From: a virus
Length of the DNA stretch: 23,846 nt
Strand: one strand, 5' to 3'
Virus record (IMG/VR): IMGVR_UViG_3300042894_003098
Coordinates: 1 to 23,846 of that record
The notes below the pieces were generated by a model. It did no database searches. It was given only the letters and a program-made list of their open reading frames with translations, and was not told where the DNA came from. How positions within the stretch are numbered: position 1 is the stretch's first letter; each line of letters starts with the position of its first letter. Of the stretch, positions 3,801 to 21,407 are shown piece after piece. The translations under genes were made by a program, and so were the position numbers.

Positions 3801-6800
3801 TAATACGTTATTTTGAAAATTTGAAGTTAAACCTAAGTAAGTTTGAACCCTACTTTTAAATTCAGTTCCTGACAATGTTGGTGTATACAGTTTTTGAGTT
3901 GCATACATTTTTATAATTGGTGCTAACAATACTACATTGTTTTCAGTAAATTCAATATCATTATCAATAAAGAAATCTGTAATGTATGAACCGTTATTAT
4001 CGTATGTCAAATTTGGTATTGTTGAAAACCCAACTTCGGTTTCCAAAACTTTCCAAGCATTAGGGTATCTTGATTTAGAAACATCTAAAGTAATTGTATT
4101 TAATGATGATGGTAAACTATTTTTAACGTATGGATTAAATATTATTGGGTCAACAACATCGTTGTTTCCACCACCTTGAGCAAGGTATGAGGCCATCACT
4201 CTTCTATTATAATCCGCAGGATTACCGTATTTTAAAATCACATCATACTCTAAAAACGCTTTAATAGTGTTTGAAAAAATAGTTAATTGTGTTTCCCCAA
4301 TTGTTTTAAAATATTCTCCATTAGTAATCGAACTTTCCTTACCGTCAATCTCCATCATATTTGTAAAAAGATACTGAAAGTTTCTAAATAACGCATTTGA
4401 GTCAACAGGTGAAACCCCTATTGGTACCGCAACTTGTAAACCTAAATCAATATTTGAGGCTGGTTTACAAAAGTTTAAAAATTCATTTTCAAATTTATCT
4501 AAAATACTTTTATCAAAAACTGAAAATATTTCTTCAATCTTAGAATAATCCGAATCCATCAATAATTTAAATGGAGATTGTTGTTTGGTACCAGTTTCAA
4601 TTTTATTAATATAGGAGTCAGCTTGCGGTTTTGAAATTTGGGTATTATCAAAATAACCGTAGTTTGGTGATGACCATAATAATCTAACAGAACCATTATA
4701 AATGGATGGGTTATCAATAAAAATACACTTAGGTTCGTTATTAATTAAACATTCACTTTTTACTTGATTGATTTGAGAACCAAATGATGGTACCACATAA
4801 TATTTTAAAGCGGTTGTATTGTTGCTTGGGTTACATGCATTTCCAACGTCTGTTGGGTCAATAGTATTATTAGGTAACACAACAGACCAAGTTTGTATGG
4901 TTGAGTATTGCGTAGGCGTAATTAAAGGAAATACAATAGTTTGAGCATTAATGTTTGAATCTGTAAAGTTATAAACTTTAACACCTCTATCAATACTTTC
5001 TTGTATTTCAGTGTCAGTATATCCACTATATAAATTATATCCATTATAAAAAACATTAAAATCATTAATTACTTTTGGATAGAATCCTGTTTGAATTTTG
5101 GTGATATTATTACTAACATTTTGTAGTGTGATTTTATTTTCACCATCAAATTTAAAAGTATATGTTTTTGTGTCGGAACTTGTTACTGGATCAAAATTTG
5201 TTTTGTAATCAAAGTTTTTCCAAGCAGACTCTAGTATATCAGTATTACTATTAATATAAGTCTTATATCTATACCATATTGAACCCATTTTTAATACCCA
5301 AGCATATGGCATTTTATGAATTGCACCAAACTTTTTAAAACAAGATGCAATATAATCTAAATCACTTGACTCACCATTAGTCTTATATTTTTCTTTTAAT
5401 GATGCTAATGGTAAAGAATTAATAAATAGATATGCCGCTTGTGTGTATGGATATGGGTCTTTCCTTCTCCAATTATTAACACCATTCTGAATTGCATTTA
5501 TAAAATACGGAGTATTCAACATTGATGTTGTTGTTTCAATTAGAATGTTTTTACTAGGTGAAAAATAATTAACATATCCTTCAGTAGGTACAAAAAATGT
5601 AGGGTCTTTTCTTATTAAATAAAAACTATCTAACCCTATTGAAGTTATTTGGTTTGTTGGATTAGAAACTTTTAAATAAGAAAAATTAGTTACAGGTCTA
5701 TTTTTACTATAATTATAAACACTATTAAAATTTGAAATAACATCTCTATCTTCAAAAACAGTTAATACTCTATTTGTGTTATATACAAAATTTTTAGTAT
5801 TCGTAATACTATTTGCCATGTGTGTTGCCACCCATGTTGGGTCAGTAAATGGATATGTATCAATGATTATTGGTTCATTTGTTACATTTTTAACTAATTG
5901 TAATAACCCATCAGTATTTGTTGTTGTCTGTGGTTCTTTACCTAAATCAGTTAAACTTAAAATATTAAAAGAATTTTCGGTTAGATTTCTAATATATGGT
6001 GTTACAAAAAAATCTCTAATATAATCTTGATATGCTCTACCCGTTCCTTGGTTTGAAATATTTTCTAAAAAAGATGGGTAATTTTGTGCAGTAATATCAT
6101 AGTTTTTAAGTTTTAAAGTTAAAAATGGTGAACTAACTCCTAAGCTAGTTACAACATTATTAGTTTCGGCACTTACAATTAATTTTGTTAGTTGGTCTAT
6201 TTGATTGTTATTTGCCCTAATAAACCCAGAGTAGTTTGAGGTTAGAAATTGTCTTTCCCATATTTCATAGAAAAATTTAATTTCTTCTTTATTTGCATAC
6301 GCAATACCTTCTGACGGATATTCAATAGCGTTTACATTAATAATGTTTGTCGTTGCCTGACTATCTATAGGTGGTTGGGATACAGGTGGATTAAATTTTT
6401 GAGTTAATCCTCTCATGTATTCCTCAACAAACTCAACCTCTGGCCATTTTTCGTACAAATAACCTTTGGTTAAATCAACAACAGATGGGTCTGCAATATA
6501 TTTTAACTGAAATCTACCCTTCTTATCTTCAGGAGTTTCCACAAAAAATTGAGGCCAAGGATACACAGGTGTTTGACCGTTAACTAACCCTTGATTAGAA
6601 CTTTGAGCGGGTTGACTTATTTTAACATTACCTTCAGTCTCTGTACCTTGAGCTGAAGATGGATTGTCTAAAATCGCAAGTTGTCTTATAGGATCATATT
6701 TTACGTTCCAAGCTTTAGTGTGTACCTCATCAAGTAATCGAATAAAACCTTCGGCCGAAGCCATAATTACCGCACATATATTTCTAACGGTCGGATTAAA

Positions 6801-8486
6801 TCCTACTTTTTCTTCTATTTTTTTCGCCAACTCGCTCGTTAACGCGGTTTCAGCTTCTGATAGTTTTTGATTTGCTTGAGTTTCCATATTAGATAATAAA
6901 TCTTGAAACTCTTCAAAATTATAAAGTGGTGGATTAACAAGATATCCAAATAAACTTTCAAATTTAGTATCGACACTACTTTTTTCAAAAGACGGTTTTA
7001 AAGCCATTTGTAAACTCAACTGCATTGACTTAGTATCCGCAGTTGTTGGTAATAATTTACCTGTTTGAGATGTTGTTGTTTTTTCTAAGTTTATGTCAGT
7101 TAAAGCAACTTGTTTAAGCATAGTATTAAAAGTAATACTATTTTTAATAGGTGTTTTACCAGATTTACCTAAAGTTGGATTTTCTGCTAAAAAACTATTA
7201 TACTCAATAGTATACGCACTTAAAAAACTAATTGCTTCCGCTTTTTTTGTTGGATTACTAATAAATTCTTGTTTAAAGTTATAAACTTCTTGTCCTGTCC
7301 CTTTTAGTATGATTGGTTTTGGGTTTAAATACGTGTTAAACCAAGAGTCTCTATCACCATAAACTGAGTTGTAGTAATTTTTTAAAGTCTCTTTATATGT
7401 TCTAATGTTTGTTAATGGTTCAACATCTGCTTTGGTATATTTATCCGCAATTGAATTTTCAAAAGTTAAAAGTTTAGTCATTAATTGAGCAAGCGTAAAT
7501 TCAGGAAAGTCAGGACTAATTAGTCCTTTAGCCTTATATTCACTATAAACTTCAATTATTTTTTGATATCCTCTTTCTGTAACTAATTCTGTTGTTATAT
7601 TTTCTGTTGATATTGACGATTCTCTTGAAACTACGTCACTTTTTGATTGAGATTCAATAGATTTGTTTGTTCCTCCTTCAGGTGATGTTGGAGATTTTGA
7701 AATATCAAATCTAGTACTGTACATGTGTGGTGCCGCAAGTAAGTTACCCATTGACACCTCATTTAAAATATTAAACTTATAACCAACAAATTCTAACTCA
7801 ATTGAGTAGTTACCGCTATAACTATTAAATCTAGCATTAAATGTTTTTAAATTTAATTGGTATCTGATGGCTTGACCATAATACCCTTTTAGGGTTAAAT
7901 AAAATGGACAATACGGTAAATTAAAAAATGCCGAATATGGTGAATTGTCTCCAAGTTGGAATAAAGCTCTTCCTTGAATATCTTCAAGAGACATTGATAC
8001 TGATGGAACGAAAGAAGTATTTGTTTTTATATTAATACTTGTAATTCCCAATAACCCATTATCGGTTGCTTTGCCACCTGGGTCGGTTATTGTCATTTTT
8101 GCATAAGGTTTTGTACCGTTTTTTGGGTCAATAATCTGCTCTTGCATTTGATTCACCCCTAAACCATTCTTTGCGTTTTTACCAGTTAATTCATCATAAT
8201 AACCCGTCGTTAAAGATTTTTCTTCAGTAGGTCTCAAAAAATTCATTTTAGCAACTGAAATAGTTCTAATTCTATCTTCAGGACTACCCCCTACCGATAG
8301 TTTAGTTCTTGGTACAACTTCAGCCTCAAGATTAGCATACATCACTAAATTTTCGTGGTCAACTAATCTTTCACGAATATTTCCAAGGGCATCAATAGTT
8401 TTATTAGGGTCAACTATAATAATATTATTATAATCAAACTCTACTAAAATATTTCCACTATTGTCTCCTTGTACATTACCTGCCAT
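846..8486 (-). CDS. Giant multidomain baseplate hub-type structural protein (2546 aa) with IPT/TIG domain
   Basis: One uninterrupted 2546-codon frame. Residues about 142-250 (from GLLGITSINI through FYLTLKGYYGQA to NLLAAPHMY) look like a beta-rich phage baseplate domain. Residues about 1830-1900 (GNALLQPTMYFNL, GPYFITQVDHVI, FQTSFTGTRQ) resemble the final domain of gp27/gpD-type tail hubs. A helical segment at about 1955-2120 follows, with NNYANV-like and Phe-rich motifs; I cannot say whether it is a degenerate peptidoglycan hydrolase. Residues about 2173-2266 (PTITSFSPLTGVSGT, LTIVGNNL, FTYNPS) match the IPT/TIG Ig-like fold, and two or more beta-sandwich-like stretches follow to the C-terminus. 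T4 hub gp27 is about 390 aa, so this is far larger. The start overlaps the 3' end of the 107-aa gene by 11 bp, implying translational coupling. A baseplate role is likely; equating it with gp27 is inference. Confidence 0.8.
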   Translation of the reverse strand: MAGNVQGDNSGNILVEFDYNNIIIVDPNKTIDALGNIRERLVDHENLVMYANLEAEVVPRTKLSVGGSPEDRIRTISVAKMNFLRPTEEKSLTTGYYDELTGKNAKNGLGVNQMQEQIIDPKNGTKPYAKMTITDPGGKATDNGLLGITSINIKTNTSFVPSVSMSLEDIQGRALFQLGDNSPYSAFFNLPYCPFYLTLKGYYGQAIRYQLNLKTFNARFNSYSGNYSIELEFVGYKFNILNEVSMGNLLAAPHMYSTRFDISKSPTSPEGGTNKSIESQSKSDVVSRESSISTENITTELVTERGYQKIIEVYSEYKAKGLISPDFPEFTLAQLMTKLLTFENSIADKYTKADVEPLTNIRTYKETLKNYYNSVYGDRDSWFNTYLNPKPIILKGTGQEVYNFKQEFISNPTKKAEAISFLSAYTIEYNSFLAENPTLGKSGKTPIKNSITFNTMLKQVALTDINLEKTTTSQTGKLLPTTADTKSMQLSLQMALKPSFEKSSVDTKFESLFGYLVNPPLYNFEEFQDLLSNMETQANQKLSEAETALTSELAKKIEEKVGFNPTVRNICAVIMASAEGFIRLLDEVHTKAWNVKYDPIRQLAILDNPSSAQGTETEGNVKISQPAQSSNQGLVNGQTPVYPWPQFFVETPEDKKGRFQLKYIADPSVVDLTKGYLYEKWPEVEFVEEYMRGLTQKFNPPVSQPPIDSQATTNIINVNAIEYPSEGIAYANKEEIKFFYEIWERQFLTSNYSGFIRANNNQIDQLTKLIVSAETNNVVTSLGVSSPFLTLKLKNYDITAQNYPSFLENISNQGTGRAYQDYIRDFFVTPYIRNLTENSFNILSLTDLGKEPQTTTNTDGLLQLVKNVTNEPIIIDTYPFTDPTWVATHMANSITNTKNFVYNTNRVLTVFEDRDVISNFNSVYNYSKNRPVTNFSYLKVSNPTNQITSIGLDSFYLIRKDPTFFVPTEGYVNYFSPSKNILIETTTSMLNTPYFINAIQNGVNNWRRKDPYPYTQAAYLFINSLPLASLKEKYKTNGESSDLDYIASCFKKFGAIHKMPYAWVLKMGSIWYRYKTYINSNTDILESAWKNFDYKTNFDPVTSSDTKTYTFKFDGENKITLQNVSNNITKIQTGFYPKVINDFNVFYNGYNLYSGYTDTEIQESIDRGVKVYNFTDSNINAQTIVFPLITPTQYSTIQTWSVVLPNNTIDPTDVGNACNPSNNTTALKYYVVPSFGSQINQVKSECLINNEPKCIFIDNPSIYNGSVRLLWSSPNYGYFDNTQISKPQADSYINKIETGTKQQSPFKLLMDSDYSKIEEIFSVFDKSILDKFENEFLNFCKPASNIDLGLQVAVPIGVSPVDSNALFRNFQYLFTNMMEIDGKESSITNGEYFKTIGETQLTIFSNTIKAFLEYDVILKYGNPADYNRRVMASYLAQGGGNNDVVDPIIFNPYVKNSLPSSLNTITLDVSKSRYPNAWKVLETEVGFSTIPNLTYDNNGSYITDFFIDNDIEFTENNVVLLAPIIKMYATQKLYTPTLSGTEFKSRVQTYLGLTSNFQNNVLNQILTRVRKDLPDQQELPERAIQSVIDGQQSKVENYEVFKALNDKWIAGSDYTSKTLFEDVMFLDRASRNIGDTIIIDIFDLKNMLSENSLNMEMSVFTFMSGILIKNKFNVMPLPAYVNFYNIQEVDGTTIPQPEGSLEFADNMWGTFLNVDYRKSGPKMICFYAGQPSTHLDLPKGNSRFRDDAFDLRRASDNPLIENPAGKKDYAISNKCVGFNVDVGNRNQNIFYSIDVNMDSGKATSESIQTQLNMVNQYNGKNTATQNVGLYNLYKQRSYQCTVRCLGNALLQPTMYFNLRHVPMFNGPYFITQVDHVITAGNFQTSFTGTRQGIYDLPSINNFLQSINQNLLTKIESLVKNSKDDVTAKAITNVDKSKYISQAGGSTAAAQNSCRNNLAVAYNSFGDVQSSTTMSITIDDFVKELEKKTSNPKLQVLIYMICYAKTFDQTKFYGYANNYANVTLTTDYGPTGSGYFSSKKYSCVNIPNSTGTKTSQPVANFNTIGDFFDFMIARLLPRVNQVFVNGMGITKYYVCHWPVSNVEESYYDSHTSEFTTLEETFNKAFKSAGVAGLNVEATTELKVATTNQKKKNNNTLAGVTTPANNLNTTTNVVPSCPPPTITSFSPLTGVSGTILTIVGNNLDEVTGITINNVTTTTGITILNAFNISVVVPFSNNGLTNIQQTPIIVRGIHGSTVTSGLFTYNPSQVTPIPNNTNNTNTQPQQTGPVTLIENTQIGVNGSTSSLMVGVNPQVLNKNTWTLDQTVEMVVSVYDNNVVNNLKTKTLNRTVTIPIIGYVSKNVFNITHENLQVILVSYPIEEFKVSPITPTQTAQIKFTIVAAPTDRAINIQDVTQSFNFDFRPTQTTIPTFAEVAASIVLIGESPTLQGNGPQFFNIKKPDNNGYITFQFNTPSFQEQNYVEIYFLDSDGDKASSSRLVDTQTRYTYEYTLTGKGVFKLIVKYRPYGLKSPVNGQVLTQTVVGPPFTL

Positions 8487-8799
8487 AATAATAAAAATAA
8501 TTATCTAATGATGCTTTATAGTCTTGTAATGAAGGTAATAACGGAAAAGGAATAATCAATACCGCACCATCATATATATAATTTTCCAACCCACCAAATT
8601 CAGGATTTGCTTGCAAAATTAACCAACCAAAGTATGGTGAATTATAAAATTCTTGAGACACCACATCCAATCTACTTCTACCAACTTTATATATAAAAGT
8701 TTTGTCTGTTGTTTTTTGAGGTAATTGCACAAAAGGAACCACGGTTTGTTCACCGTTAATTAAAAAATCACTATATCTATTCCAATATTGGTATGCCAT
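8476..8799 (-). CDS. LysM-like small baseplate protein (gp53/gpX-type), 107 aa
   Basis: A 107-residue protein. Its middle follows the pattern of small phage baseplate proteins of the T4 gp53 / P2 gpX kind: FIYKVGRSRLDVVSQEFY, then a Trp-containing stretch (FGWLILQANP), then an acidic/Gly turn leading to GAVLIIPFP, as in a LysM-like beta-alpha-alpha-beta fold. The N-terminus (YWNRYSDFLINGE) is typical of wedge proteins that begin with an Arg/Tyr/Phe-rich segment. The start ATG shares one base with the stop of the 1680-aa gene (TAATG), and the stop overlaps the next gene by 11 bp, so the three baseplate genes form a tightly coupled run. T4 gp53 is about 196 aa, so this is a short version. Role at the hub-wedge junction is inferred from family and position. 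Confidence 0.7.
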   Translation of the reverse strand: MAYQYWNRYSDFLINGEQTVVPFVQLPQKTTDKTFIYKVGRSRLDVVSQEFYNSPYFGWLILQANPEFGGLENYIYDGAVLIIPFPLLPSLQDYKASLDNYFYYYGR

Positions 8800-11700
8800 T
8801 AGTTAAGTTTTGCTTTAGATATAAATACCTCTGCAGGTTTTTCGTCATTCCATGTTTTATTTTTTGTGTTTTGGTTTTCAACCCAACCTAAACCTTTTAT
8901 TAAATCTTTTTGAGCATTTGTATTCGCGTTTTCAGTATCATATTCAAAGTTTCTTTTTTTCTTAAGTGTGAATGGAGTATAAATTAAAAAATCTTTTAAT
9001 CTTTCTTTTTCCATGTAATTTATAAACTCTTTAGTAATAGTATTTTCATCAATAAATAATGGTTTTGCTATCTTATCCCAATATGCATCAAAAACTTCAC
9101 CAATATTATCCGCACCATTACCAATCAATCCTTCGTTTTTAATTGTATTACCAATTAACGCATTTTTAAATGTTTCATATTTTTTAGTGTCGGTAACATC
9201 ATCAGAAACAATCATATATACTCTCCTAAAAACATTATTATCAAATGTCGACCCAGGGCTTAAACTAATATAGTCTTGATTAACACTAAAAGGTTCGAAT
9301 ACTTCTTCACCTGAAGGTAATTTATAAGGTAAAGGTAAAACTAAAGTTCCTGTATACGATTTACCGTTGTATGTAAAAGTATTTGCACTCCATACAATTT
9401 TATTAAATTCAGTAATTCCACTATTAATTTTTTTAACATCATTTTCAAGTTCAACTAAAGTATTTGTTGCTGGTGCCGAACTAGCGTCAACTTCTGTGGT
9501 TGGGTATAAGATGTATGAAAATACCTGTCCATTACTTTGTTGGTATCCATCAGTTCCTGTATTAGGGATTGCACTATATGTTATTGTGTTAATTCTTCCA
9601 ATATATCCCATATAATTTTGTTGTACCGCAACCATACCATTTGTGATATTAGTTACCGCACTTTGAAATGAACTTCTTTTATTTTTAACAAAATTTGAAT
9701 AGTTTTCTTTAACTTGTCTTATAAGTTTATTTGAAAACCTTTTAGATTTATCTGAAATAAATTGAATGAACGCCTCATCATCATTCTTAATATCTTTAAC
9801 AAGTTGACCAAATATCTCATCAGTTCTTTTTTCTAAATTGTAAGACTTACCAAACAGAGTAGTTCCTGAAGTTTTTGTAATTAAAAAATTACCCTCAGTA
9901 TATACTCGTTCCATCATCCATTGTTGACGAACGGCATTATTATATTGGTTAACCGTTTCTCTATTTTTATTAACAACATTTGTAAAATATGATTGAGTTT
10001 CTGTTACAACCTTATCCATAAAAATACTATAATTAATTGTACCTGTTTGACCTGTCTCGGTTATGACATTACTTGTTACAGTACCAATTGGTTTGTTATT
10101 GTTTTGGCCATTATTTGGTGTTGTTTGATTAAGTGTTGGAGGTGCAACATTACTTGGTGCTAATTTTAAAAATTCAGCATCAATAACTTTATAACTTAAA
10201 TCAGTAGAATCAGCTCTATCATCATAAATTTCTGTGTTGGCATAATAATTGAATGTTAATGCGTTTTGCAATTTGTCAACAGATTCTTTTAATCCACTAC
10301 CACCTACAAAGTTAAACCCTAATGTAATGTTTGCAATCATAGGTTGAACACCAATACCTTCTGGGTTAATATCCAAATTTTCATACTGGATACCCAAACT
10401 TGTTGGGATTATTTTTGTGTTATAAAAATCACCAACTCTTAATATTAAAACAGGTGGTGCACCAAACGAAGTATTTGTTGCGTCATTATAAACAGGTGTT
10501 GCAGCACCATTAATAGTTTTGATTGTCGGTATTGTATCACCAGGCCTCATGCATTGTTGTAAAAAAGTTAACCTTGAGTTAAGCCCTTCAGGAGTAATTG
10601 AGTGGAAAGCTGGTTGGAAGAATTTTAATTTATCTCTAAGGTTATCGTAAACCATTGGAGTTTCTTCTTTAATTGTTTCAAAATAATCACACTCGGATAA
10701 TAAAGAACGTAAAACTCTCTTACTTATATTGTCTTTATCAATATACTTAGGTTCAATCGGAGGGGTTGTAACTGTCTTTGGAACATCATTAGGTACATTT
10801 TCAGTTGTTACTTTTGCTGGAGGTACTACTTTAGGCGCCTTTAATGTTGATTGTATGTTAGAGATATACGCTCTCCTACAAGCCATTGCCCTTGTTGTAT
10901 AAACTTCTTTATTTTGTACAGTACTGTTACTGTTTCTACCATCATTATCACCACAAGAAACACTACTTCCTGGTACGAAAGTTTTAGTTTTGTCATCAAA
11001 TTTCATTACTTGGGTATTCTCACCACGACCTTCACCAATTTTAACAATTAAATTTGTTCCGACATATTTTGTCATTTTACTATTACCTGTAATGAATATT
11101 GCCGCAGAATTAATTCTTTTTGCAGATAAAATATTATTATATGCCTGTGTTGCTGCGGGTGAAGTACTACTATCAATTGTAATTGTTACAACACCTTCTA
11201 TCTTACCTTCAGAGTTAGCGTTACTTATAAATTCTTTTTCTAACGTATCAATTAGACCATCAAGTTTTTGTTTATTAGATATAACCACACTATCAAAAAA
11301 CGAACTTGTTTGAGCTGAAGTTGTTTTTGATTGATATTCTGGTCTTTGTCCAATATAGTTATCATATAATGGAGTGAACGGTTGATTAAATTCTAATGGT
11401 CTGTTATTATCAAAATAAAAACCTACATTTTCAAAAGTTTTAAGTGTTGATTCAGGAGCACCACCAGTTCCCGTATCACTAGATAAATCAGGAGTTGTTT
11501 TAACCGTATTAATTGCAAACTCTAATTGTTCTTTTGATAGTTCTTTTGATGAAATTGCTTGTTGTATATCAAATAAATCGTTAGGTGATATTGTGTAATA
11601 TTTTTTTGCAAGCTCATATAAATCATATTTTCTACATCCCGCAAAAAATGATTCTAAAATACTATCAACCCTAACCTTATTTGTTTCGTTAGCCAAAACT

Positions 11701-13841
11701 TTATTAACGATAACATTTAAAACTGATGGATGGTCAACCACTATTTTCCAAGTTAAACTACCTGTTCTAGTAGTATTCTTGTAAGTATATATTGGCTCTG
11801 GTCTACCTATAAATTCATTAGGTTGCCAATTCGCTTGCACGGTTTCATTAAATGTTAATCCGTATGGTGGGAACCACATAACTCTACCTCCATTTGGGCC
11901 TCTTTCACAAACAGGCAAATCCGCAACTGAAAATCCTGGAGTATTTGAAGTCGCCCATGCCAAATTTTCAATTGAAAACATATATTTTTTGGCATAAGCA
12001 TTATTATATGTTCCAATCAAATTGGTTGAATCTTGACCACCTTCTTGTTTGTTTGGAGCAATGTTAAGATTATATGTCTTATCTAAAACCGAATACGAAA
12101 ATCTTCTACCTTCAGTAACAATTCCATCTGTTTTTTGTAGGTCATTATATTGAAGATATGGTACGTCTTTAGTAAAAACTCTACAATATTCAGTTCCAAC
12201 TTCTTGTCCAATAGCTCCTGTATATTGTATAACCTTTGAACCTTTGGTTAATTCTTTGTAACCATCATGGAATATTTTACTAACTTGGTCTATTGCATTA
12301 CCAACGTGTTGTAATCTTTTACCCCCTTCAGGTTGGCTATTAATAATTCTTTGAGTGTCATCAAGGATTGAACCTTCTTTAAAGGTTCTTTCTGTAGATT
12401 CGGTTGTATTATATGATGAAGGTTTAAAGTCTTCATCTTGGTCTAATATAACCCCACCTACACCTACTTTCTTACCCGCATTTCCTTTGTATTTTGGAGA
12501 CACCCAAGTGAATCCACCTTCAATACCACCACCATTACTATATGTTGGGCCATTAGCACCTAAACGAATTTCCTTACTTGGACCTTCATATAACTGTGCC
12601 AACTCATGTGGTCCAAATACAGGTGATTGTTGTTCATTACCAAACGCGTCTACGGGTAAAGCTCTACTTGGTGAGAATACTCTTGATGGGTCTGACGTTG
12701 TTGAACCAATATAAAAATTAGCATTGTTTGTTTCGGTCCCTACAATCGCACCTCCTAATCTGTCAAGTAATGTTCTATCGTAATTTGGTTTGTATCTATT
12801 GTAGTTAATATTTTTCCACAATATAGATTTTTGTCCAGGACCTGTATTGTTGTAGAATATTTGTGAACCAGTCTTACCCGCACCTAAAAGTTTACTTGTT
12901 AAATTACCTAAAGCGGCAAGTGGATTTGCCAATAAAGCTTGTCCAATTGTTGTTGGTTGACCTGGATTAATATTTGGGTCAAAATATGAACCAGGTATTA
13001 ATGAAAAAGGTACAAGACTACCACCTAATCTAAGTCCAAAATCAGCAGCGGCAGTTATAGGATTGGCAGGAACGGTGATTTGATAATTAGGTTCAATTAA
13101 CGGAACTCTACCCGTTAGAATATTAACAACATTGGTACTACTATTAATATTTAAAAAGTTGGCACGGCCAATAGTTTCTCTAACAATCGCTCTACCAATT
13201 CTTTCTTCAAATTCTCTTTTAAGTGTTCTTGCACCTAAACGAGCAATAAACGAATCTTGACTTAGTAATCCATTACTACCTGTTGGGTCGGGGCTTAATA
13301 AAATAGATAATGGACTATACGATGAAGGATTAAAAATTGTTGGATAAGGTTGATTATTATATAACTGTCTTATTCCACCAGGTATTGAACTTGATATTGT
13401 ATCTGGTGTTGTAATATAAACACCAGCATCATATTGTTCTAATCCTCCATTACCAAAAGCGTTAACCGCCAAATACGGTCCAGTAATACCATTAAAACCT
13501 TTTTGAGCGGCAATCTTAGCTTGGTCAATAATATGCGCATCTTGTTGACCAGGACCATATTCACCTTTATTTGATACAGTATTTAAGTTTCCACTAATAT
13601 CAGGTACTAATTGGTAACCTCCGTCGTTACCCCACCTATTAAGCGGATATTGTTTATCCGCATAAAAAGTTGTATCAATAAGACCATCAGGACTATCGAC
13701 CACTGAAAAATCGGATTGAATTACTTCGTAAGTTGTCGGAGGCGTAACTTTAGTAGGGGACTTAGCATAAGGTACTAAATTCCTTGTAATTAGTTTTTTT
13801 CTAAAACCTTCTGTGTTTATATAATCTAATGGACTACCCAT
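8799..13841 (-). CDS. Large baseplate protein (1680 aa) with split tube-initiator-like region and OmpA-like insert
   Basis: It lies directly after the tape measure gene, where T4 has the tail-tube initiators gp48/gp54. Residues about 677-700 (GRPEPIYTYKNTTRTGSLTW) resemble the beta-hairpin region of tube-initiator/baseplate proteins. Residues about 1127-1210 (PPVLILRVGDFYN, then IANITLGFNFVGG) resemble the second part of such a domain. Between them, about residues 860-990, lies an OmpA-C-like segment (GVVTITIDSS, then AYNNILSAKRINSAAIF, then IGEGRGEN and ACRRAYISNI), a fold that usually binds peptidoglycan. The N-terminal 600 residues are Gly/Pro/Asn-rich without recognised motifs, and the C-terminal 400 are mixed alpha/beta. 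The ATG is in the same frame as the tape measure gene, 48 bp after its stop. Baseplate location is well supported by context; domain names are from visual pattern matching. Confidence 0.72.
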   Translation of the reverse strand: MGSPLDYINTEGFRKKLITRNLVPYAKSPTKVTPPTTYEVIQSDFSVVDSPDGLIDTTFYADKQYPLNRWGNDGGYQLVPDISGNLNTVSNKGEYGPGQQDAHIIDQAKIAAQKGFNGITGPYLAVNAFGNGGLEQYDAGVYITTPDTISSSIPGGIRQLYNNQPYPTIFNPSSYSPLSILLSPDPTGSNGLLSQDSFIARLGARTLKREFEERIGRAIVRETIGRANFLNINSSTNVVNILTGRVPLIEPNYQITVPANPITAAADFGLRLGGSLVPFSLIPGSYFDPNINPGQPTTIGQALLANPLAALGNLTSKLLGAGKTGSQIFYNNTGPGQKSILWKNINYNRYKPNYDRTLLDRLGGAIVGTETNNANFYIGSTTSDPSRVFSPSRALPVDAFGNEQQSPVFGPHELAQLYEGPSKEIRLGANGPTYSNGGGIEGGFTWVSPKYKGNAGKKVGVGGVILDQDEDFKPSSYNTTESTERTFKEGSILDDTQRIINSQPEGGKRLQHVGNAIDQVSKIFHDGYKELTKGSKVIQYTGAIGQEVGTEYCRVFTKDVPYLQYNDLQKTDGIVTEGRRFSYSVLDKTYNLNIAPNKQEGGQDSTNLIGTYNNAYAKKYMFSIENLAWATSNTPGFSVADLPVCERGPNGGRVMWFPPYGLTFNETVQANWQPNEFIGRPEPIYTYKNTTRTGSLTWKIVVDHPSVLNVIVNKVLANETNKVRVDSILESFFAGCRKYDLYELAKKYYTISPNDLFDIQQAISSKELSKEQLEFAINTVKTTPDLSSDTGTGGAPESTLKTFENVGFYFDNNRPLEFNQPFTPLYDNYIGQRPEYQSKTTSAQTSSFFDSVVISNKQKLDGLIDTLEKEFISNANSEGKIEGVVTITIDSSTSPAATQAYNNILSAKRINSAAIFITGNSKMTKYVGTNLIVKIGEGRGENTQVMKFDDKTKTFVPGSSVSCGDNDGRNSNSTVQNKEVYTTRAMACRRAYISNIQSTLKAPKVVPPAKVTTENVPNDVPKTVTTPPIEPKYIDKDNISKRVLRSLLSECDYFETIKEETPMVYDNLRDKLKFFQPAFHSITPEGLNSRLTFLQQCMRPGDTIPTIKTINGAATPVYNDATNTSFGAPPVLILRVGDFYNTKIIPTSLGIQYENLDINPEGIGVQPMIANITLGFNFVGGSGLKESVDKLQNALTFNYYANTEIYDDRADSTDLSYKVIDAEFLKLAPSNVAPPTLNQTTPNNGQNNNKPIGTVTSNVITETGQTGTINYSIFMDKVVTETQSYFTNVVNKNRETVNQYNNAVRQQWMMERVYTEGNFLITKTSGTTLFGKSYNLEKRTDEIFGQLVKDIKNDDEAFIQFISDKSKRFSNKLIRQVKENYSNFVKNKRSSFQSAVTNITNGMVAVQQNYMGYIGRINTITYSAIPNTGTDGYQQSNGQVFSYILYPTTEVDASSAPATNTLVELENDVKKINSGITEFNKIVWSANTFTYNGKSYTGTLVLPLPYKLPSGEEVFEPFSVNQDYISLSPGSTFDNNVFRRVYMIVSDDVTDTKKYETFKNALIGNTIKNEGLIGNGADNIGEVFDAYWDKIAKPLFIDENTITKEFINYMEKERLKDFLIYTPFTLKKKRNFEYDTENANTNAQKDLIKGLGWVENQNTKNKTWNDEKPAEVFISKAKLN

Positions 13842-13889: not shown

Positions 13890-15731
13890 TTATCTTCTTT
13901 CTAACTCTTTTGCCTTTTGATTGTAATATTCGTAAATCTTTTTTTTGAATTCGTCTGATTCAAAAAATGTTTTAAATTGTTGCTCACTAACACCCGCAGG
14001 TGCATCGACTTTAATTGTAATTGTACCTCCAAAATCAACTTGGGAGTTAATATTAGTTGTTTTTGTTTTTGTGTCCATAGGTGTTGGAGTACTACCTTTA
14101 CCAAAAACAGAACTTCTGGATAATGGTTCTGATTTTTGTGTTCCTGTTATTGCAGAAGTTTTACTTGTTGTTTCTGGAGGTCTTCCAATACCTGTTAAAA
14201 TTTCTGAAGTATATTTTTTAAATTCTTTTTCAATTGCACTACTACCAGTAACTTTTTTATTACTTTCTTCTAAAATATCTTTTAAAGCCTCCATACCTTT
14301 TTCTCCATACGAACTTGCTTTACTTTTAATCCCGTCTTGAAGTTTTTCTAGTTTAGTTGCAAAATCCGCACTACTAATCTTACCCGTATCTTTTTGTAGG
14401 AAAAGCTCTCCCATTTTACTCACAGCACTGTTAACACTTTTTGTTATTTCAGCACTTTCAGGTACATTTTTATCAACGGCACCTGTAACTGCTCTGGTTA
14501 TTCTGTCAGCTCCTAATACGTTACCTCTAACAACCGCAGAACCAGCAATACCAAAAGTTCCTTTTGCAATATTAGCGTCTAAAGATTTTTGAATATTTTT
14601 TAAAACATCTAATTGGTTAATTTGTATATCTTCTAAAGTTTTTGGGGCTTTTTCTTGTTGTTCTCTTAACTTTGTAAGTTCTTCTTGGGTAATATCACCT
14701 AATTTTTTTTGTTCTACTTTACCAGTTTCATCATCTTTAAGTTGGACAACATACTCATTATCTTTCATTGTTGCCATATTAGCCAAAAACTGCTTATCTT
14801 CTTCGTTTTTAAAATTTAAAGATGGGCTAATAGCCGAAAGTCTTTTATCTAAATCGGCGGCTGCTAATGCGGTTTTTGCAAGTTCTTTACTACTAATACC
14901 AGTAACTTCCGACATTTCTTTTAACATTAAGATACCTTGAGGGTTTATCTTAAATGATTTTGTTTTTTCGTCAAATTCAGTGTATTGTTTTGTCGCTTTA
15001 ATAATACTATCTTGTAACGCACCTGGGTCATTAATTGAATCGTTCATTAATTTAAATGGGTCAACTAATCCACCAATATTTACTCCCAACCTTTGAAATC
15101 CTGCCGCAGCCTCAATAGCACCTTCAGGTGACATAACTTTATCTGCGAAATTAGCGGTATTTTGCATATCAAACCTCAACATTGAAGCTTGGGCTGCCAT
15201 TTTTGTCAATCCTTGAACACCATCACTAAAGTTGAATCTATTCATCAACTCCATGTTACCAGTAACGTCTTTCATTACTGTTTTGGCATTAAGACCAACA
15301 CTTTGAACATATTCTATTGAGTTTTCTAAATTTGGACCAATTTGAGATGTTTCATACCCAACTTGAGCAAAAGTTTCAACTAAAGTTTTAGAATCTGTAT
15401 TAAGAATTGTTGACGCGGCATATAATTTACTAACTTGTTCTTCTGTTGCGATAACATTTCTCCTCGCACCATCAGCAATTCCAATCATTGTTCGACTAAC
15501 CTCAGAAATATCACCACCTAAACGAATAACACCTGCTGCCGCTCTTGAGACAGCATCATTCATTTCATCTAATCTAGTCCTACCTTGTAAGAACGCATTG
15601 TTTAACTTGTCCGCCTCATCGTACATGCTACCAATGGCGTCCAAGATATTTTCCATTGGACTTCCTAATTTTTTAAAACTTTCTTCAAGGTCTTTAAGAC
15701 TACCTTTATCTTCTGGATTAAAATCTGCCAT
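13890..15731 (-). CDS. Tail tape measure protein (613 aa)
   Basis: A 613-residue, predominantly helical protein rich in Ala, Lys, Glu and Asp, with long coiled-coil-like stretches. The N-terminal 400 residues show repeated alpha-helical segments (for example EVSRTMIGIADGARRNV and LYAASTILNTDSKTLVETFA) typical of TP901/gp29-type tape measures. The C-terminal part is a Ser/Thr/Pro-rich linker followed by a small beta element (GGTITIKVDAPAGVS) and a charged helix ending KELERR. Length is close to T4 gp29 (590 aa), so a T4-like tail length of roughly 90-100 nm is inferred. It sits just after the gp26-like chaperone genes and before the baseplate genes, the standard place for a tape measure in myophages. 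Shadow frames on both strands within it were discarded. Confidence 0.85.
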   Translation of the reverse strand: MADFNPEDKGSLKDLEESFKKLGSPMENILDAIGSMYDEADKLNNAFLQGRTRLDEMNDAVSRAAAGVIRLGGDISEVSRTMIGIADGARRNVIATEEQVSKLYAASTILNTDSKTLVETFAQVGYETSQIGPNLENSIEYVQSVGLNAKTVMKDVTGNMELMNRFNFSDGVQGLTKMAAQASMLRFDMQNTANFADKVMSPEGAIEAAAGFQRLGVNIGGLVDPFKLMNDSINDPGALQDSIIKATKQYTEFDEKTKSFKINPQGILMLKEMSEVTGISSKELAKTALAAADLDKRLSAISPSLNFKNEEDKQFLANMATMKDNEYVVQLKDDETGKVEQKKLGDITQEELTKLREQQEKAPKTLEDIQINQLDVLKNIQKSLDANIAKGTFGIAGSAVVRGNVLGADRITRAVTGAVDKNVPESAEITKSVNSAVSKMGELFLQKDTGKISSADFATKLEKLQDGIKSKASSYGEKGMEALKDILEESNKKVTGSSAIEKEFKKYTSEILTGIGRPPETTSKTSAITGTQKSEPLSRSSVFGKGSTPTPMDTKTKTTNINSQVDFGGTITIKVDAPAGVSEQQFKTFFESDEFKKKIYEYYNQKAKELERR

Positions 15732-15762: not shown

Positions 15763-15785
15763 GAAGGACTAAAATTTAGTCCTTC
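15763..15785 (-). terminator. Perfect hairpin after the chaperone genes, possible intrinsic terminator
   Basis: Arms GAAGGACTAA and TTAGTCCTTC pair perfectly around a 3-nt loop (10-11 bp stem). The hairpin overlaps the stop codon of the 59-aa ORF. On the minus strand it is followed by a T-rich but interrupted tract (TTCTATTTAT), so termination is plausible but may be leaky. On the plus strand it is also followed by a T-rich stretch. Confidence 0.5.
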
Positions 15786-15955
15786 CTATTTTCTTCAATC
15801 CATTTATCCAATAAATATTTTCTAACAAATATCGGCATTTGAATAAAATCTTGATATGTTATTTTCATTAAGTTATTCAGATAGTAAAATTCATCTATCT
15901 GACTTTTCCTATAATTAGAAGAAAGGACGAAAAAATTCGACCCCGAAACCAACAT
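15776..15955 (-). CDS. Overlapping +1-frame ORF, T-domain-like tail assembly chaperone extension (59 aa)
   Basis: A 59-codon frame that overlaps the last 41 bp of the gp26-like gene in the +1 frame. An in-frame TAA directly precedes its first ATG (15955). The part after the overlap (IDEFYYLNNLMKITYQDFIQ, then MPIFVRKYLLDKWIEEN) looks like the short Met-Pro/Arg/Trp motif of gpT-type tail chaperone extensions and of T4-like gp51/gp26 neighbours. It can be made in two ways: from its own ATG, which has no well-placed ribosome site, or by +1 (or -2) slippage of ribosomes on the TTTTTTC run at 15935-15929, fusing it to the gp26-like protein. Its position between tube and tape measure is where lambda-like phages encode G/GT. 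The ORF looks real because the conserved-looking part continues well beyond the overlap. The expression mode is unresolved. Confidence 0.6.
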   Translation of the reverse strand: MLVSGSNFFVLSSNYRKSQIDEFYYLNNLMKITYQDFIQMPIFVRKYLLDKWIEENRKD

Positions 15956-16658
15956 TTACTGTTAGTTTTTCTCCTGACGGGGTCGTAATAATTTTAGTCA
16001 TATCCAATCTTGGTTCATTTTCATTCATGAAACTTCTAATAAATTTTGAATCAGCGATTGGCATTGATTCAACAAATTTTGCAATAATCGCTTTATCGGT
16101 TGAACCATCAACCTCAATAATTTCTTTTTGCATTCTCCAAGTAATTTTTGGAACAACCCTTCCTTGAGGATATGTGTCCGCCATTTTACTAATCTCCAAA
16201 ATCTCACCATAAGTTAATGGTTTAAGTTTAATTGTTGATTGTGTTTTTGGTAAATTAATTATAAAACTTCCGTCTTCATTTGGTTGTTGACCATTAACAA
16301 TTGATAATTGATCTAACATAACATTTGTTTGAAACTGTTTTTTAGTTCCAGGGTCAGTAAGATTTAATGTCATTTCAGGACCAAACCCTGTGTTTCTTAG
16401 GAAAATTAAGATAGCCTCAACATCACCCTCAATAAGGTCTTCAACCCTCATATCTGGTTCGTATATTTTTGCCCTTAACAAATTAAGGGTTAAATCACTT
16501 CCACCCGCCATTATAATATTTTCATCCGCAGCAGTTAAATAACCAACCTTAATTGATTTTTTTCTGTTTTTGTAAAAAATACCTTGAGATGGTAATGGTA
16601 CCACGTCGTGTGGTAATGTAAAATTTTGTTGACCGTAGTCGTTTGATTGTGTGTCCAT
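15915..16658 (-). CDS. T4 gp26-like baseplate/tail assembly protein (247 aa)
   Basis: The protein matches the pattern of the T4_baseplate family (gp26-like; usual length about 210-240 aa). The N-terminus has LPSQGIFYKN followed by VGYLTAADENIIM. A central ILIFLRNTGFGPEMT and a C-terminal half with KPLTYGEILEIS follow, and it ends in VEFFRPFF, like the FFxP ends common in this family. In T4, gp26 acts with gp51 in hub assembly. Here the gene lies between tube and tape measure, the usual slot for tail assembly chaperones, and a T-domain-like ORF overlaps its 3' end in the +1 frame. The start ATG at 16658 follows directly on a terminator hairpin and its T tract, so translation begins almost at the hairpin's foot. 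No Shine-Dalgarno sequence is visible. Family assignment is fairly firm; a chaperone role is inferred. Confidence 0.78.
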   Translation of the reverse strand: MDTQSNDYGQQNFTLPHDVVPLPSQGIFYKNRKKSIKVGYLTAADENIIMAGGSDLTLNLLRAKIYEPDMRVEDLIEGDVEAILIFLRNTGFGPEMTLNLTDPGTKKQFQTNVMLDQLSIVNGQQPNEDGSFIINLPKTQSTIKLKPLTYGEILEISKMADTYPQGRVVPKITWRMQKEIIEVDGSTDKAIIAKFVESMPIADSKFIRSFMNENEPRLDMTKIITTPSGEKLTVNVGFGVEFFRPFF

Positions 16659-16730: not shown

Positions 16731-17219
16731 TTAGTAAACTAACACACATCTGTCCATTCTTAATGTTGCAGATATTGTTGCTAATCCATCAGTATTGTAT
16801 GCTAACGAATCAAAGTTAACATCGGTTAAGAATGTTCCATAAAGAATCCATTTCTCAACAACAACTCCTGTTGGGTCCAACATTTCAAGGTCGATGTCTT
16901 TTTTGTAACCCGCAGCATAACCCATACGACCTGTTACTGATTCAGCATGTAAACGAACCCACTCCATAAGAGCTTGAGCTGCTGATGGTCCAATAGGGTC
17001 ACGAAACTTAACTGGAATTGTTTGCCAGTTGAATCTACCTGCAACGTAAGTAGATGTGTTTAAGAACGGTATTTCTGTTGCAACAATTGTAATGTGTGGT
17101 CTAGCCGTTGACTCTACAAACCATTCGTTAATACCCAAACTTGATGGAAACCTTAGGATAAAACGATTTTGACGTTTAGGTTCGTAAGGTATCGGCATTT
17201 TCATTAATAAATCAGCCAT
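16731..17219 (-). CDS. Tail tube protein, gp19-like (162 aa)
   Basis: A 162-residue protein, almost the same length as T4 gp19 (163 aa). It begins MADLLMKMPIPYEPKRQNRF, where the 'PKRQNRFILRFP' stretch is characteristic of T4-like tube proteins. It continues with the beta-rich pattern of the tube fold (IPVKFRDPIGPSAAQALMEW, then GYKKDIDLEMLDPTG, then WILYGTFLTDVNFDSLAY) and ends in a strand with LRMDRCVLVY. Copies stack into hexameric rings inside the sheath. It is preceded by a 99-bp AT-rich spacer with a TATAAATA octamer and a TATTTAT-type element, and followed by a strong intrinsic terminator, consistent with independent, high expression. Confidence 0.92.
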   Translation of the reverse strand: MADLLMKMPIPYEPKRQNRFILRFPSSLGINEWFVESTARPHITIVATEIPFLNTSTYVAGRFNWQTIPVKFRDPIGPSAAQALMEWVRLHAESVTGRMGYAAGYKKDIDLEMLDPTGVVVEKWILYGTFLTDVNFDSLAYNTDGLATISATLRMDRCVLVY

Positions 17220-18191: not shown

Positions 18192-21100
18192 TTAGATATT
18201 TTCAAACGAAGCTCCTGTTGGAGTGATGAAGAACTCAATGTCGATGAATTCTAACGCCTTCGTTGGTTTTAAGTAGATTTTACCTACAAGTCTGTTAGCG
18301 TCTAAATCTTCAGGTGTTGAAGATACAGTTACACGGAAATCGTATAAACCTCTATCTCTTCTGATTGAATCTAAGATAGGGTTAACACTATCCAAGAATT
18401 GTTGTCTAACGATTTGGTCGTTTTGTTCGAACAATAATCTTACTGCCACTGCAGAAATCAATTTACGTGCTTGAAGTAATAATCTTCTTACGTTCAATCT
18501 GTTAAGTGCGGTGTCCGCAACTTGTAATGTTTTATTACCCCAAATTACTGTTCCAACATCAGAGAAAGTTGCAATTGGGTTGATTCTACCTTGATACAAT
18601 GTATCTCTATCTGTTTGTGTAAGTTTTTGTCTAGCTTTGATTGAATTAACAAGACCTCTTGTGTAACCCGCTGATGCGAACCAAGGGAATGAAATGTTAT
18701 CTGTCAATGCTAAGTTTCTACAAACCTCACCAGTTGGTGGTAAGTAAATTTGTGTATTATTTACTGTGTCTCTTGTTAAAATCCAAGGATAGTAAGTTGC
18801 GGTATAGTTAGAATCAATTCCTGTGTTATCCAAGTTATCAACCGCTTCTTGTGAGTAGATAATGTCTTGAGGATTTGTTGAGTCAGGAGTAAACATTTGG
18901 TAGTCAGGAGTTGTAGCGATATAAACCGAGTCAGCTCTTGAGAATTGTACCATGTCAATTGCTTCTTCTACTAAGTTTGAGTTATTAACATAATCAATTG
19001 ATGTTGTTGCAAAAACGTTAATGTTTGTAGATTCAGGATTTGAGAATGTTAAAATACCGAGTAAATAAGCGTAATAGTCTGTATTAGCAAAATCTTGAGT
19101 ATTGTTTTGTATAACAATTCTTTTAAATATACCTTCACCTGTTGCTGTTGGGTATCTTGAAGATGGAGACGCTCCTGCTAAGTAACCTGCAGCACCTATT
19201 TGGAATCTATCTTGGTTAGTTCTCCATTCTCTATAAATGTCCCATCCGTCAAATCCACCTGCAAAACATACAGTATATTTTCTTGAGAAGATGAAGTAGT
19301 ATGGATTTTCTTGAGTTTCAGGGTCGTTTCTAAATTCAGCAACACCACACTCAAATGCAGTTTCACCACTTGACATTGACGAGATTCCAATTGTAACAAC
19401 GGTTGCACCTGAGTCCATGTGGAAACCTTTACTAATAACATTCCAACGTTGACCCTCAACCAAAGGATTTGAAATCCAATTTGAAGGATTTTGTTTACCT
19501 TTATATGTTAAGAAAGACTCATCAATACCAAATTGACTTGAGAATCCTAAATAACTTCTTCTAACAATATCACCTGCAGATTCAACTGGAGCACCGCCCG
19601 CATTTGTACCAAAAGGAGGATTATAAATTACTTCTCCAGGAAAATAGTATTTTGTTTTATATTTCGGATATGGTGAAGGGTAAACATTATAATCTAAATA
19701 TTCTCTTTGAGTATATCCATAGAATCCACAAGGTAACGCGTCAATTGGGGCCTCATCAGCCATTTCCACCATTATGAATTTTGATATTAACGCAAATTCA
19801 CCATTTGAAGATCCTATTTTTTTAGCTACAAAGTTATTTGTTGCTGGATCCATATTACAATTTGTGAATTTTTCAATTACAACAGGGTTAGAATCTGTAT
19901 CAAAGAAATTTCTAACTAATACATCAAATGACATGTTATTATATGATAAGTTTGCAATTGAAACTTTAATTTCGGTGTTTGCAGAATTACCATCAGAAAT
20001 TGAAATAAATTTAAATAAATTGTAAACTTTATTACCTCTCAATTCTGAAACTAAAAATGGTGTTTCAGGTGATTGATATTGTTCTAAATTGTAAGCAATT
20101 GAAGTTGACTGCTCACTTCTAGCTTCAGGTAATGCTATTAATCCACAAGCTAAACCACGAATATATCCTTCATTGTAAGCATAGTTTAATGATGCTTGGT
20201 AAGCCTCCTCAACATAAATTGGAACTTCAAATCTTGATTTACCAAAATTATCAACACCCAATACTTTAGTTATGTACTTTGCAGATGACGCTAATAATGA
20301 AGTTTCAAATGTGAATGTTTCATTATTTTTAGTTATACCTGATAATAAAAAAGTTGAGTAAGGTGATTTTGTAATTCCTGAATATTGTCCTGTACACACT
20401 AATTGTAAATCTGTGAGACCACTTACTTGGTAAACTGGTCCGTGATTTTCACTTGCACTATTATTTTCAAATAAAGAGATACCTCTTGAACGAATAGTAC
20501 CTACAATCATGTTATTAAATTCTGTGTATGCAGTACCTGTAAATGCATATGAGTTACCAACAATAGTACCTGTAAATGTGTTAGACGCTCCTGAAACTAA
20601 GTTTGATACTGTATAGTAGAATGAATAACCTGTATAATTGTTTGTTGTTGAGTCATTATTTTCAAACTCAAAATTTGCATAATACCAAGAATCGTTATCA
20701 CCTTCAGTTAAGTCATTTTGAACAAAATCATTTTCACAACCATAAGGATTATAATCGGTAGTGTATGTACTGGTTAACGTTTGATAATCAGTTTCAGGAA
20801 TTGCACCATATATAACTGCAGTAGTTGCAGATGTTGATGGTAAATCCATGATTGAATCTAAAAAATTATTAAAATCATCTTGTAATGTTGATGTTGTACC
20901 GTCTTGTAATCTATATTGTACATTTAAATTAGCATTAACTTCGGCAGGTAAAGAACCCCCAACAAAGGTAACTGTATTACCTGTTGAGCTTCCTGTGAAG
21001 TTCGCACTAAATGGAACACCAACAGATGGGTTTCCAATAGTCGTTGGGTCTACATTGGCGGTAACACTAAGAGACCATGAAGGACCTGCGTCATAACCTG

Positions 21101-21407
21101 ATAAACCCAAAACTCTGGTAACAAACAATTGGTTTGATTGTTGTAAATATGATTTAGCAATATATGCTGCTTCATATTTTGGTATTTGAGTATTAAAAAA
21201 CTTAACGGGTTCTGTTCCCCCGAAATAAGCTTGGAACTCATCATAATTTGTTATGAATACTGGTTCGAATGCTGGACCTTTTATTGTTTCTCCAACAAGA
21301 CCTAAAGTCGTTACACCCACACTTTGGGCTACGAATGATAAGTCGGTTTCAGATGTGTAAACGCCTGGTGATACGAATACTTTTTGATTTGCTTGTGCTG
21401 TTGCCAT
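18192..21407 (-). CDS. Contractile tail sheath protein, enlarged (1071 aa)
   Basis: The N-terminus is diagnostic of T4 gp18-type sheaths: SPGVYTSETDLSFV (residues 13-26), then TTLGLVGETIKGPAF and ITNYDEFQAYFGG. The C-terminal domain is equally typical: FPWFASAGYTRG (about 906), then ARQKLTQTDRDTLY, NPIATFSDVGTVIWGNKT, LNVRRLLLQARKLI and a final strand region with DIEFFITP. T4 gp18 is 659 aa; the extra 400 residues fall mainly at about 115-385, a Ser/Thr/Asn/Tyr-rich beta-type stretch, with smaller additions near 590-780. These are probably surface domains decorating the tail. Polymerises around the tube and contracts at injection. Preceded by a 120-bp spacer with TATAAATA and TATTTAT elements and followed by a UUCG terminator. 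No frameshift or internal stop. Confidence 0.95.
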   Translation of the reverse strand: MATAQANQKVFVSPGVYTSETDLSFVAQSVGVTTLGLVGETIKGPAFEPVFITNYDEFQAYFGGTEPVKFFNTQIPKYEAAYIAKSYLQQSNQLFVTRVLGLSGYDAGPSWSLSVTANVDPTTIGNPSVGVPFSANFTGSSTGNTVTFVGGSLPAEVNANLNVQYRLQDGTTSTLQDDFNNFLDSIMDLPSTSATTAVIYGAIPETDYQTLTSTYTTDYNPYGCENDFVQNDLTEGDNDSWYYANFEFENNDSTTNNYTGYSFYYTVSNLVSGASNTFTGTIVGNSYAFTGTAYTEFNNMIVGTIRSRGISLFENNSASENHGPVYQVSGLTDLQLVCTGQYSGITKSPYSTFLLSGITKNNETFTFETSLLASSAKYITKVLGVDNFGKSRFEVPIYVEEAYQASLNYAYNEGYIRGLACGLIALPEARSEQSTSIAYNLEQYQSPETPFLVSELRGNKVYNLFKFISISDGNSANTEIKVSIANLSYNNMSFDVLVRNFFDTDSNPVVIEKFTNCNMDPATNNFVAKKIGSSNGEFALISKFIMVEMADEAPIDALPCGFYGYTQREYLDYNVYPSPYPKYKTKYYFPGEVIYNPPFGTNAGGAPVESAGDIVRRSYLGFSSQFGIDESFLTYKGKQNPSNWISNPLVEGQRWNVISKGFHMDSGATVVTIGISSMSSGETAFECGVAEFRNDPETQENPYYFIFSRKYTVCFAGGFDGWDIYREWRTNQDRFQIGAAGYLAGASPSSRYPTATGEGIFKRIVIQNNTQDFANTDYYAYLLGILTFSNPESTNINVFATTSIDYVNNSNLVEEAIDMVQFSRADSVYIATTPDYQMFTPDSTNPQDIIYSQEAVDNLDNTGIDSNYTATYYPWILTRDTVNNTQIYLPPTGEVCRNLALTDNISFPWFASAGYTRGLVNSIKARQKLTQTDRDTLYQGRINPIATFSDVGTVIWGNKTLQVADTALNRLNVRRLLLQARKLISAVAVRLLFEQNDQIVRQQFLDSVNPILDSIRRDRGLYDFRVTVSSTPEDLDANRLVGKIYLKPTKALEFIDIEFFITPTGASFENI

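What the first reader, a model, noticed from the sequence alone, without database searches (positions are those of the whole stretch)
15776..15955. Recoded or overlapping T-domain-like ORF at the 3' end of a gp26-like gene
The +1 frame overlaps the gp26-like gene by 41 bp and continues 46 codons past its stop, ending in a motif (YYLNN, MPIFVRKYL, DKWIEEN) like the short extension of tail chaperones. A TTTTTTC run (15935-15929) lies in the overlap, 12 bases before the 0-frame stop. There, tRNA-Phe could move from TTT to TTC in +1, or -2, giving a gp26-T fusion. Lambda-type phages make G and GT by -1 slippage at this same map position between tube and tape measure. A +1/-2 version attached to the T4 gp26 family would link the T4 gp26/gp51 pair with G/GT chaperones.
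Basis: partly seen in the sequence, partly recalled or inferred. Interest (0 to 1): 0.8.

Follow-up and report, generated by a model that had tools for sequence, protein, structure and literature searches.

The report
Frameshifted tail-chaperone gene in gp26-like phages
A phage gene needed to build the contractile tail appears to make two proteins, a short one and a longer one, because some ribosomes skip one base at a run of Ts near its end; lambda makes its tail chaperones by a similar trick, but it was not known in this T4-gp26-like family.

Summary
The +1 frame overlapping the 3' end of the gp26-like gene is open in every close relative inspected and is under strong protein-level selection (dN/dS 0.10; the other two frames give 1.0 and 2.3). 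The shift site TTT TTT + CGT/CGC/CTC is invariant there. Every distant +1 relative keeps the same frame relation at the same Phe-[Phe/Leu] site, as UUU_C, UUU_U or CUU_U. Twenty-four of 83 unique distant +1 sequences have no ATG, GTG or TTG before the extension, so only recoding can express it. I conclude that this gene makes a short chaperone (G-like) and a fused one (GT-like) by +1 frameshifting. The published T4 pair gp26/gp51 is the unrecoded equivalent: gp51 is colinear with the fusion. A sister group of marine T4-like cyanophages encodes the extension in the -1 frame behind U_UUU_UUC. The window clade also carries a conserved hairpin 2 nt upstream of the T run. Known beforehand: G/GT frameshifting in general, T4 gp26/gp51 as a chaperone pair (2022), and +1 or -2 versions in other phages. 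Apparently new: recoding in the gp26 family. No product has been seen by experiment.

The parts
15915..16658 (-). gp26-like gene (247 aa), the short, G-like tail assembly chaperone
   Evidence: PF12322 28.1 bits over cut-off 24.5 and phrog_150; AlphaFold model pLDDT 86 matches viral gp26 models, SP-15 hub subunit E=1e-17
15929..15935 (-). shift site TTT_TTT_C; 0-frame GAA TTT TTT CGT, P-site Phe tRNA can re-pair in +1 (UUU to UUC, or UUU to UUU at the first codon)
   Evidence: TTT TTT 31/31 in both Phe columns, while 8 of 9 other conserved Phe columns mix TTT and TTC
15927..15929 (-). rare codon CGT after the slip codon (CGT, CGC or CTC in relatives)
   Evidence: CGT 9% and CGC 0% of Arg codons in the window; CGT is 2.7% and CGC 0% of Arg codons in gp26 genes but CGT/CGC in 22/23 at this site
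15776..15928 (-). +1-frame extension (T-like domain, three helices), read after the shift: VLSSNYRKSQIDEFYYL...WIEENRKD
   Evidence: dN/dS 0.10; AlphaFold helices at residues 13-30, 34-39, 42-57 of the 59-aa ORF, pLDDT 88-91 in the core, residues 1-10 disordered
15776..15955 (-).
   Evidence: ATG lost in L068-L076 and in most distant relatives
15938..15985 (-). predicted RNA hairpin ending 2 nt upstream of the T run: CGACCCCG...CGGGGUCG with an inner stem
   Evidence: MFE -22.9, z=-4.2, 0/200 shuffles; 92% of pair cells standard, 4 pairs with double change, covariation score 0/500 shuffles
16731..17219 (-). tail tube protein, upstream neighbour
   Evidence: phrog_4542 E=1.3e-23
13890..15731 (-). 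gene at the tape-measure position (613 aa), downstream neighbour
   Evidence: position only; no family match and no similarity to the immuto tape measure

Best explanation
The gp26-like gene encodes a tail assembly chaperone in two forms. Most ribosomes read to the 0-frame stop and make the 247-aa short form (G-like). A minority pause with Phe-tRNA on UUU and a rare CGU/CGC codon next. The P-site tRNA slips one base forward (UUU to UUC at the second codon, or UUU to UUU at the first) and translation goes on in +1, giving a fusion of about 293 aa with a three-helix C-terminal domain (GT-like). By analogy with lambda, the short form would coat the tape measure and the extension of the fusion would recruit tube subunits. 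Shown by sequence: the frame relation, the conserved site, the selection on the extension, the lack of start codons in relatives, and colinearity with T4 gp51. Inferred: that slippage happens, its direction and rate, the role of the hairpin, and the chaperone function.
For: (1) Protein-level selection in the +1 frame beyond the stop: dN/dS 0.10 over 383 pairs; other frames 2.3 and 1.0. (2) The same +1 relation in 79/79 immuto-type loci, the marine L160 clade and L176/L177, LR756508, immuto, GXN1, LIS04 and SP-15, Mel-JY01 and RM378, and 9 contigs binned with bacteria. (3) 24 of 83 unique sequences outside the window clade have no ATG/GTG/TTG in the +1 ORF before the extension and 56 of 83 have no ATG; the window clade lacks ATG in 3 of 30. 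(4) Slippable codons at the same F-[FL] pair in all +1 clades, mostly followed by CGT, CGC, CTC or the single-tRNA codon TGG. (5) Fused +1 products align to T-even gp51 through the extension (hhalign E=7e-7) and to -1 fusions (E=2e-16); the -1 fusions align to gp51 with E=2e-22. (6) Gene order tube, gp26, extension, tape measure. (7) Synonymous constraint and a covarying hairpin just upstream of the site.
Against: No product, reporter or ribosome-profiling data. Most window-clade members keep an in-frame ATG at 15955 and all keep some ATG, GTG or TTG, so separate initiation is not excluded for them by sequence. The extension alone aligns to the gp51 C-terminus only weakly (E=0.003, just above 100 shuffles). 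L170 and L175 carry the domain as a separate ORF with its own ATG. The Listeria phage LIS04 site is TTT TTT AGT, slippable only at the first codon. The match of the gp26 model to HK97 chaperone 2ob9 is not significant (E=2.3, TM 0.47 by target).
Confidence: 0.86

Rival explanations
1. The extension is a separate small overlapping gene, started at ATG 15955 or another codon by coupled translation, and no fusion is made.
For: ATG present in most window-clade members; L170, L175, P-SSM2 and Cygsa01 have an own-ATG version.
Against: ATG lost in the L068-L076 sublineage; 24 of 83 unique distant sequences have no ATG, GTG or TTG at all. The domain's predicted fold starts only after the shift site. 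T4 gp51 has it fused.
Confidence: 0.08
2. The recoding is a -2 rather than a +1 shift.
For: UUUUUU allows P-site re-pairing 2 nt back in the window clade, LIS04 and SP-15; Mu uses -2 (PMC5009743).
Against: -2 re-pairing is not possible at TTC TTT TGG, TTT CTT TGG or TTT CTA TTC, which +1 explains.
Confidence: 0.08
3. RNA polymerase slippage on the T run makes mRNAs with a changed frame.
For: A run of 6 T in the window (7 in L016).
Against: Relatives with TTC TTT TGG or TTT CTT TGG have runs of only 3-4 T but the same frame relation; rare-codon and hairpin conservation would be unexplained.
Confidence: 0.03
4. Chance open frame or sequencing error.
For: Short ORF without a family match.
Against: Kept in all relatives under purifying selection.
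Confidence: 0.01

Closest known systems
Lambda G/GT tail assembly chaperones (Xu et al. type)
   Same: Map position between tube and tape measure; short protein plus frameshifted C-terminal extension that starts near the 3' end.
   Different: -1 shift in lambda, +1 here; no sequence similarity; gp26 fold family.
T4 gp26 and gp51 (chaperone pair, Vladimirov, Gautam and Davidson 2022, cited in PMC10885494)
   Same: Both T4 proteins match PF12322; gp51 is PF12322 (residues 1-201) plus a 48-aa C-terminus, colinear with the frameshift fusion.
   Different: T4 uses two divergent genes and no frameshift; here one gene with recoding.
Marine cyanophage gp26 and short 'gp51' (S-CAM22, P-SSM2 and relatives)
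   Same: Same F-F site, same extension, out of frame across the stop.
   Different: Extension in the -1 frame behind U_UUU_UUC in 76 of 78 loci.
HSTV-2 (+1), Mu (-2) and Listeria PSA tsh (+1) frameshifts (PMC5009743)
   Same: Non -1 recoding in phage tail genes.
   Different: Other protein families and other shift sites (CCC_UGA in PSA).
prfB CUU_UGA and influenza PA-X UUU_CGU +1 sites (site sequences from my own knowledge)
   Same: P-site slip UUU to UUC or CUU to UUU with a slow next codon.
   Different: No stop codon in the A site, unlike prfB; conserved upstream hairpin in the window clade.

Membership tests
PF12322 / phrog_150 (T4 gp26 family) | Profile match above curated cut-off | tested here: met
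   28.1 bits against 24.5; phrog_150 E=1.4e-10
PF12322 / phrog_150 (T4 gp26 family) | Shared fold | tested here: met
   Foldseek to SP-15 hub subunit E=1e-17, Aeromonas phage 25 gp26 E=3e-5
G/GT tail assembly chaperones | Gene lies between tube and tape measure | tested here: inconclusive
   Tube identified; tape measure in the window by position only, named in immuto and SP-15
G/GT tail assembly chaperones | C-terminal extension in another frame under selection | tested here: met
   dN/dS 0.10, relation conserved
G/GT tail assembly chaperones | -1 slippery heptamer | tested here: not met
   The extension is in +1
G/GT tail assembly chaperones | Two products made at a fixed ratio, absent from virion, binding tape measure and tube | not testable with these tools
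   Needs protein work
G/GT tail assembly chaperones | Solved chaperone fold (HK97 2ob9) | tested here: inconclusive
   E=2.3, prob 0.28, TMt 0.47
T4 gp51 | PF12322 domain plus C-terminal domain, colinear | tested here: met
   Fusion against gp51 E=7e-7 through the extension
T4 gp51 | Separate full-length gene next to gp26 | tested here: not met
   One gp26-like gene in the window record; the record is a fragment
DUF6760 (PF20546) | Profile match above cut-off | tested here: not met
   No match for the 59-aa product; best relative 14.6 bits against 27

The most novel reading that the evidence does not exclude
The Phe-Phe codon pair at the end of gp26-family chaperones is an old recoding hub of contractile-tailed phages: read +1 in one large branch (with an upstream hairpin as stimulator in the window clade), -1 at U_UUU_UUC in marine T4-like cyanophages, and replaced in T-even phages by a duplicated in-frame gene (gp51), so that T4, the textbook exception to G/GT frameshifting, descends from a frameshifting ancestor.
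Probability: 0.5. Interest if true: 0.78.

Novelty: new variant of a known kind. Interest (0 to 1): 0.64.

Why it matters
Reviews list T4 as the exception to the otherwise conserved G/GT frameshift (PMC5009743), and the 2022 work explained T4 itself by gene duplication. Finding the same chaperone family recoded +1 here and -1 in cyanophages puts T4-like phages back in the general scheme and gives a system in which one site has been kept while the direction of slippage changed. It also corrects annotations: the extension is missed, or listed as a separate hypothetical or 'gp51' gene. The +1 site, with its rare codon and 5' hairpin, is directly testable in E. coli reporters.

Tried and rejected
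Fold search of the extension found nothing. DUF6760 as the family of the extension: below cut-off. A shared upstream hairpin in the immuto-type and other clades: a small ATTCC/GGGGT stem there follows from the coded motif I-P-I-G and is not kept. GGGG as a Shine-Dalgarno-like stimulator: GGG at codon -3 is 23/23 against 3.7% background, but the spacing is longer than in prfB (my own knowledge), and it is equally explained as the 3' arm of the hairpin; left open. Downstream structure: no consistent signal. tRNA genes in the window: none. Literature: nothing held describes recoding of gp26; the key 2022 paper is not held, so it may already discuss cyanophages.

Full report
Observation. The window is a 23.8-kb virus record carrying, on the minus strand, a sheath (18192-21407), tube (16731-17219), gp26-like gene (15915-16658), the 59-aa +1 ORF (15776-15955) and a gene at the tape-measure position (13890-15731). 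The gp26 assignment passes Pfam's cut-off and is confirmed by a confident AlphaFold model that matches gp26-like models of other phages.

Close relatives. Eighty IMG/VR contigs encode the gp26-like protein at 80-100% identity. In every one the codons TTT TTT are followed by CGT, CGC or CTC, and the +1 frame stays open to about 142 nt beyond the stop unless the contig ends first. Among 35 distinct sequences (383 pairs), the part beyond the 0-frame stop has dN/dS 0.10 in the +1 frame, against 2.3 and 1.0 in the other two frames; gp26 itself gives 0.16. Both slip-site Phe codons are TTT in 31/31, while 8 of 9 other conserved Phe columns mix TTT and TTC. The next codon is CGT or CGC in 22/23 unique sequences, although CGT is 2.7% and CGC 0% of Arg codons in these genes. 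The in-frame ATG is lost in the L068-L076 sublineage.

Distant relatives. tblastn finds LR756508, Flavobacterium phage immuto, Streptococcus phage GXN1, Listeria phage LIS04 and Bacillus phage SP-15 at 22-30% identity. All have the +1 frame open across the gp26 stop into a short domain. So do the marine L160 clade and L176/L177, 79 of 79 immuto-type contigs, Microcystis phage Mel-JY01 and Rhodothermus phage RM378, and nine contigs binned with bacteria. The site is the last F-[FL] pair of the conserved C-terminal motif: TTT CTT TGG, TTT TTT TGG, TTC TTT TGG, TTT CTA TTC, TTC TTT CGT, TTT TTT CAC and, in LIS04, TTT TTT AGT. Each allows a P-site tRNA to re-pair one base forward. Twenty-four of 83 unique sequences outside the window clade have no ATG, GTG or TTG before the extension, so there the extension can only be made by recoding. 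The -2 alternative cannot re-pair at several of these sites.

What the extension is. Its core is predicted as three helices beginning just after the shift site, with the upstream residues disordered. T4 gp26 and T4 gp51 both match PF12322, gp51 over residues 1-201 with 48 residues left over. Fused +1 products align with T-even gp51 through that C-terminus (hhalign E=7e-7), and the -1 fusions of cyanophages and relatives align even better (E=2e-22). The extension on its own is only weakly similar to the gp51 C-terminus (E=0.003), while the cyanophage version is clearly similar (E=3e-12). The link therefore rests on colinearity plus an intermediate family.

Sister solution. In the S-CAM22 group of marine T4-like phages, 76 of 78 contigs end gp26 with U_UUU_UUC, and 77 of 78 have the domain in the -1 frame open across the stop, several without any start codon. 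Vibrio phage VmeM-32 (U_UUU_UUU), Variovorax phage V45v66 and L260 look alike. L170, L175 and Cygsa01 have the domain as its own ATG gene. P-SSM2 has both a start codon and the heptamer.

Cis signals. In the window clade the last 16 codons before the site show unusual codon choices: CCG 19/23 against 2.6%, GGG 23/23 against 3.7%. These form a hairpin that ends 2 nt before the T run (z=-4.2) and has some compensatory changes (4 pairs; covariation above all 500 shuffles; that control does not remove relatedness). Other clades lack it. A 5' stem-loop is modelled at the take-off site of T4 gene 60 bypassing (PMC5009743), so a 5' stimulator is plausible, but it is untested here.

What is known. G/GT frameshifting is conserved in long-tailed phages 'except T4', with -1, -2 and +1 forms (PMC5009743). 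For T4-like phages a short gene and a separate fused gene were reported in 2022 (cited in PMC10885494; paper itself not held). I therefore do not count the gp26/gp51 link as new. I found no report of recoding in this family, within an open-access library only.

Verdict. The finding stands: a +1 programmed frameshift in a gp26-type tail chaperone gene, with strong comparative and no experimental evidence.

Noticed in passing
L288-L367 (and L264, L267, L268, L269), 3' end of gp26: Marine T4-like cyanophage-type gp26 genes end in U_UUU_UUC; in nearly all, the short 'gp51' domain lies in the -1 frame open across the stop: a likely -1 programmed frameshift, annotated as separate genes.
   Followed up: partly
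L159 (T4 NC_000866) genes 26 and 51: T4 gp51 is a full PF12322 protein plus a 48-aa C-terminal domain, i.e. a paralogue of gp26 with the T-like extension fused in frame.
   Followed up: yes
window 15938-15985 (-): Hairpin directly 5' of the shift site with conserved rare codons in the last 16 codons of gp26; not seen in other clades.
   Followed up: partly
L155 4857-4967; L158 4740-4859: Short 'hypothetical' genes annotated between hub and tape measure in immuto and SP-15 are truncated calls of the +1 extension.
   Followed up: yes
L160:2692-2871 (+): Weak similarity of this +1 extension to DUF6760 (14.6 bits), a small Pfam family I recall from extracellular contractile injection systems; these may hold the same two-part chaperone.
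   Followed up: partly
window 18192-21407 (-): Tail sheath gene is unusually long (1071 aa); sheath profile matches begin only at about residue 840, so some 840 N-terminal residues are unassigned.
   Followed up: no
window 846-8486 and 8799-13841 (-): Two very long proteins (2546 and 1680 aa) beyond the tape-measure position without PHROG matches.
   Followed up: no
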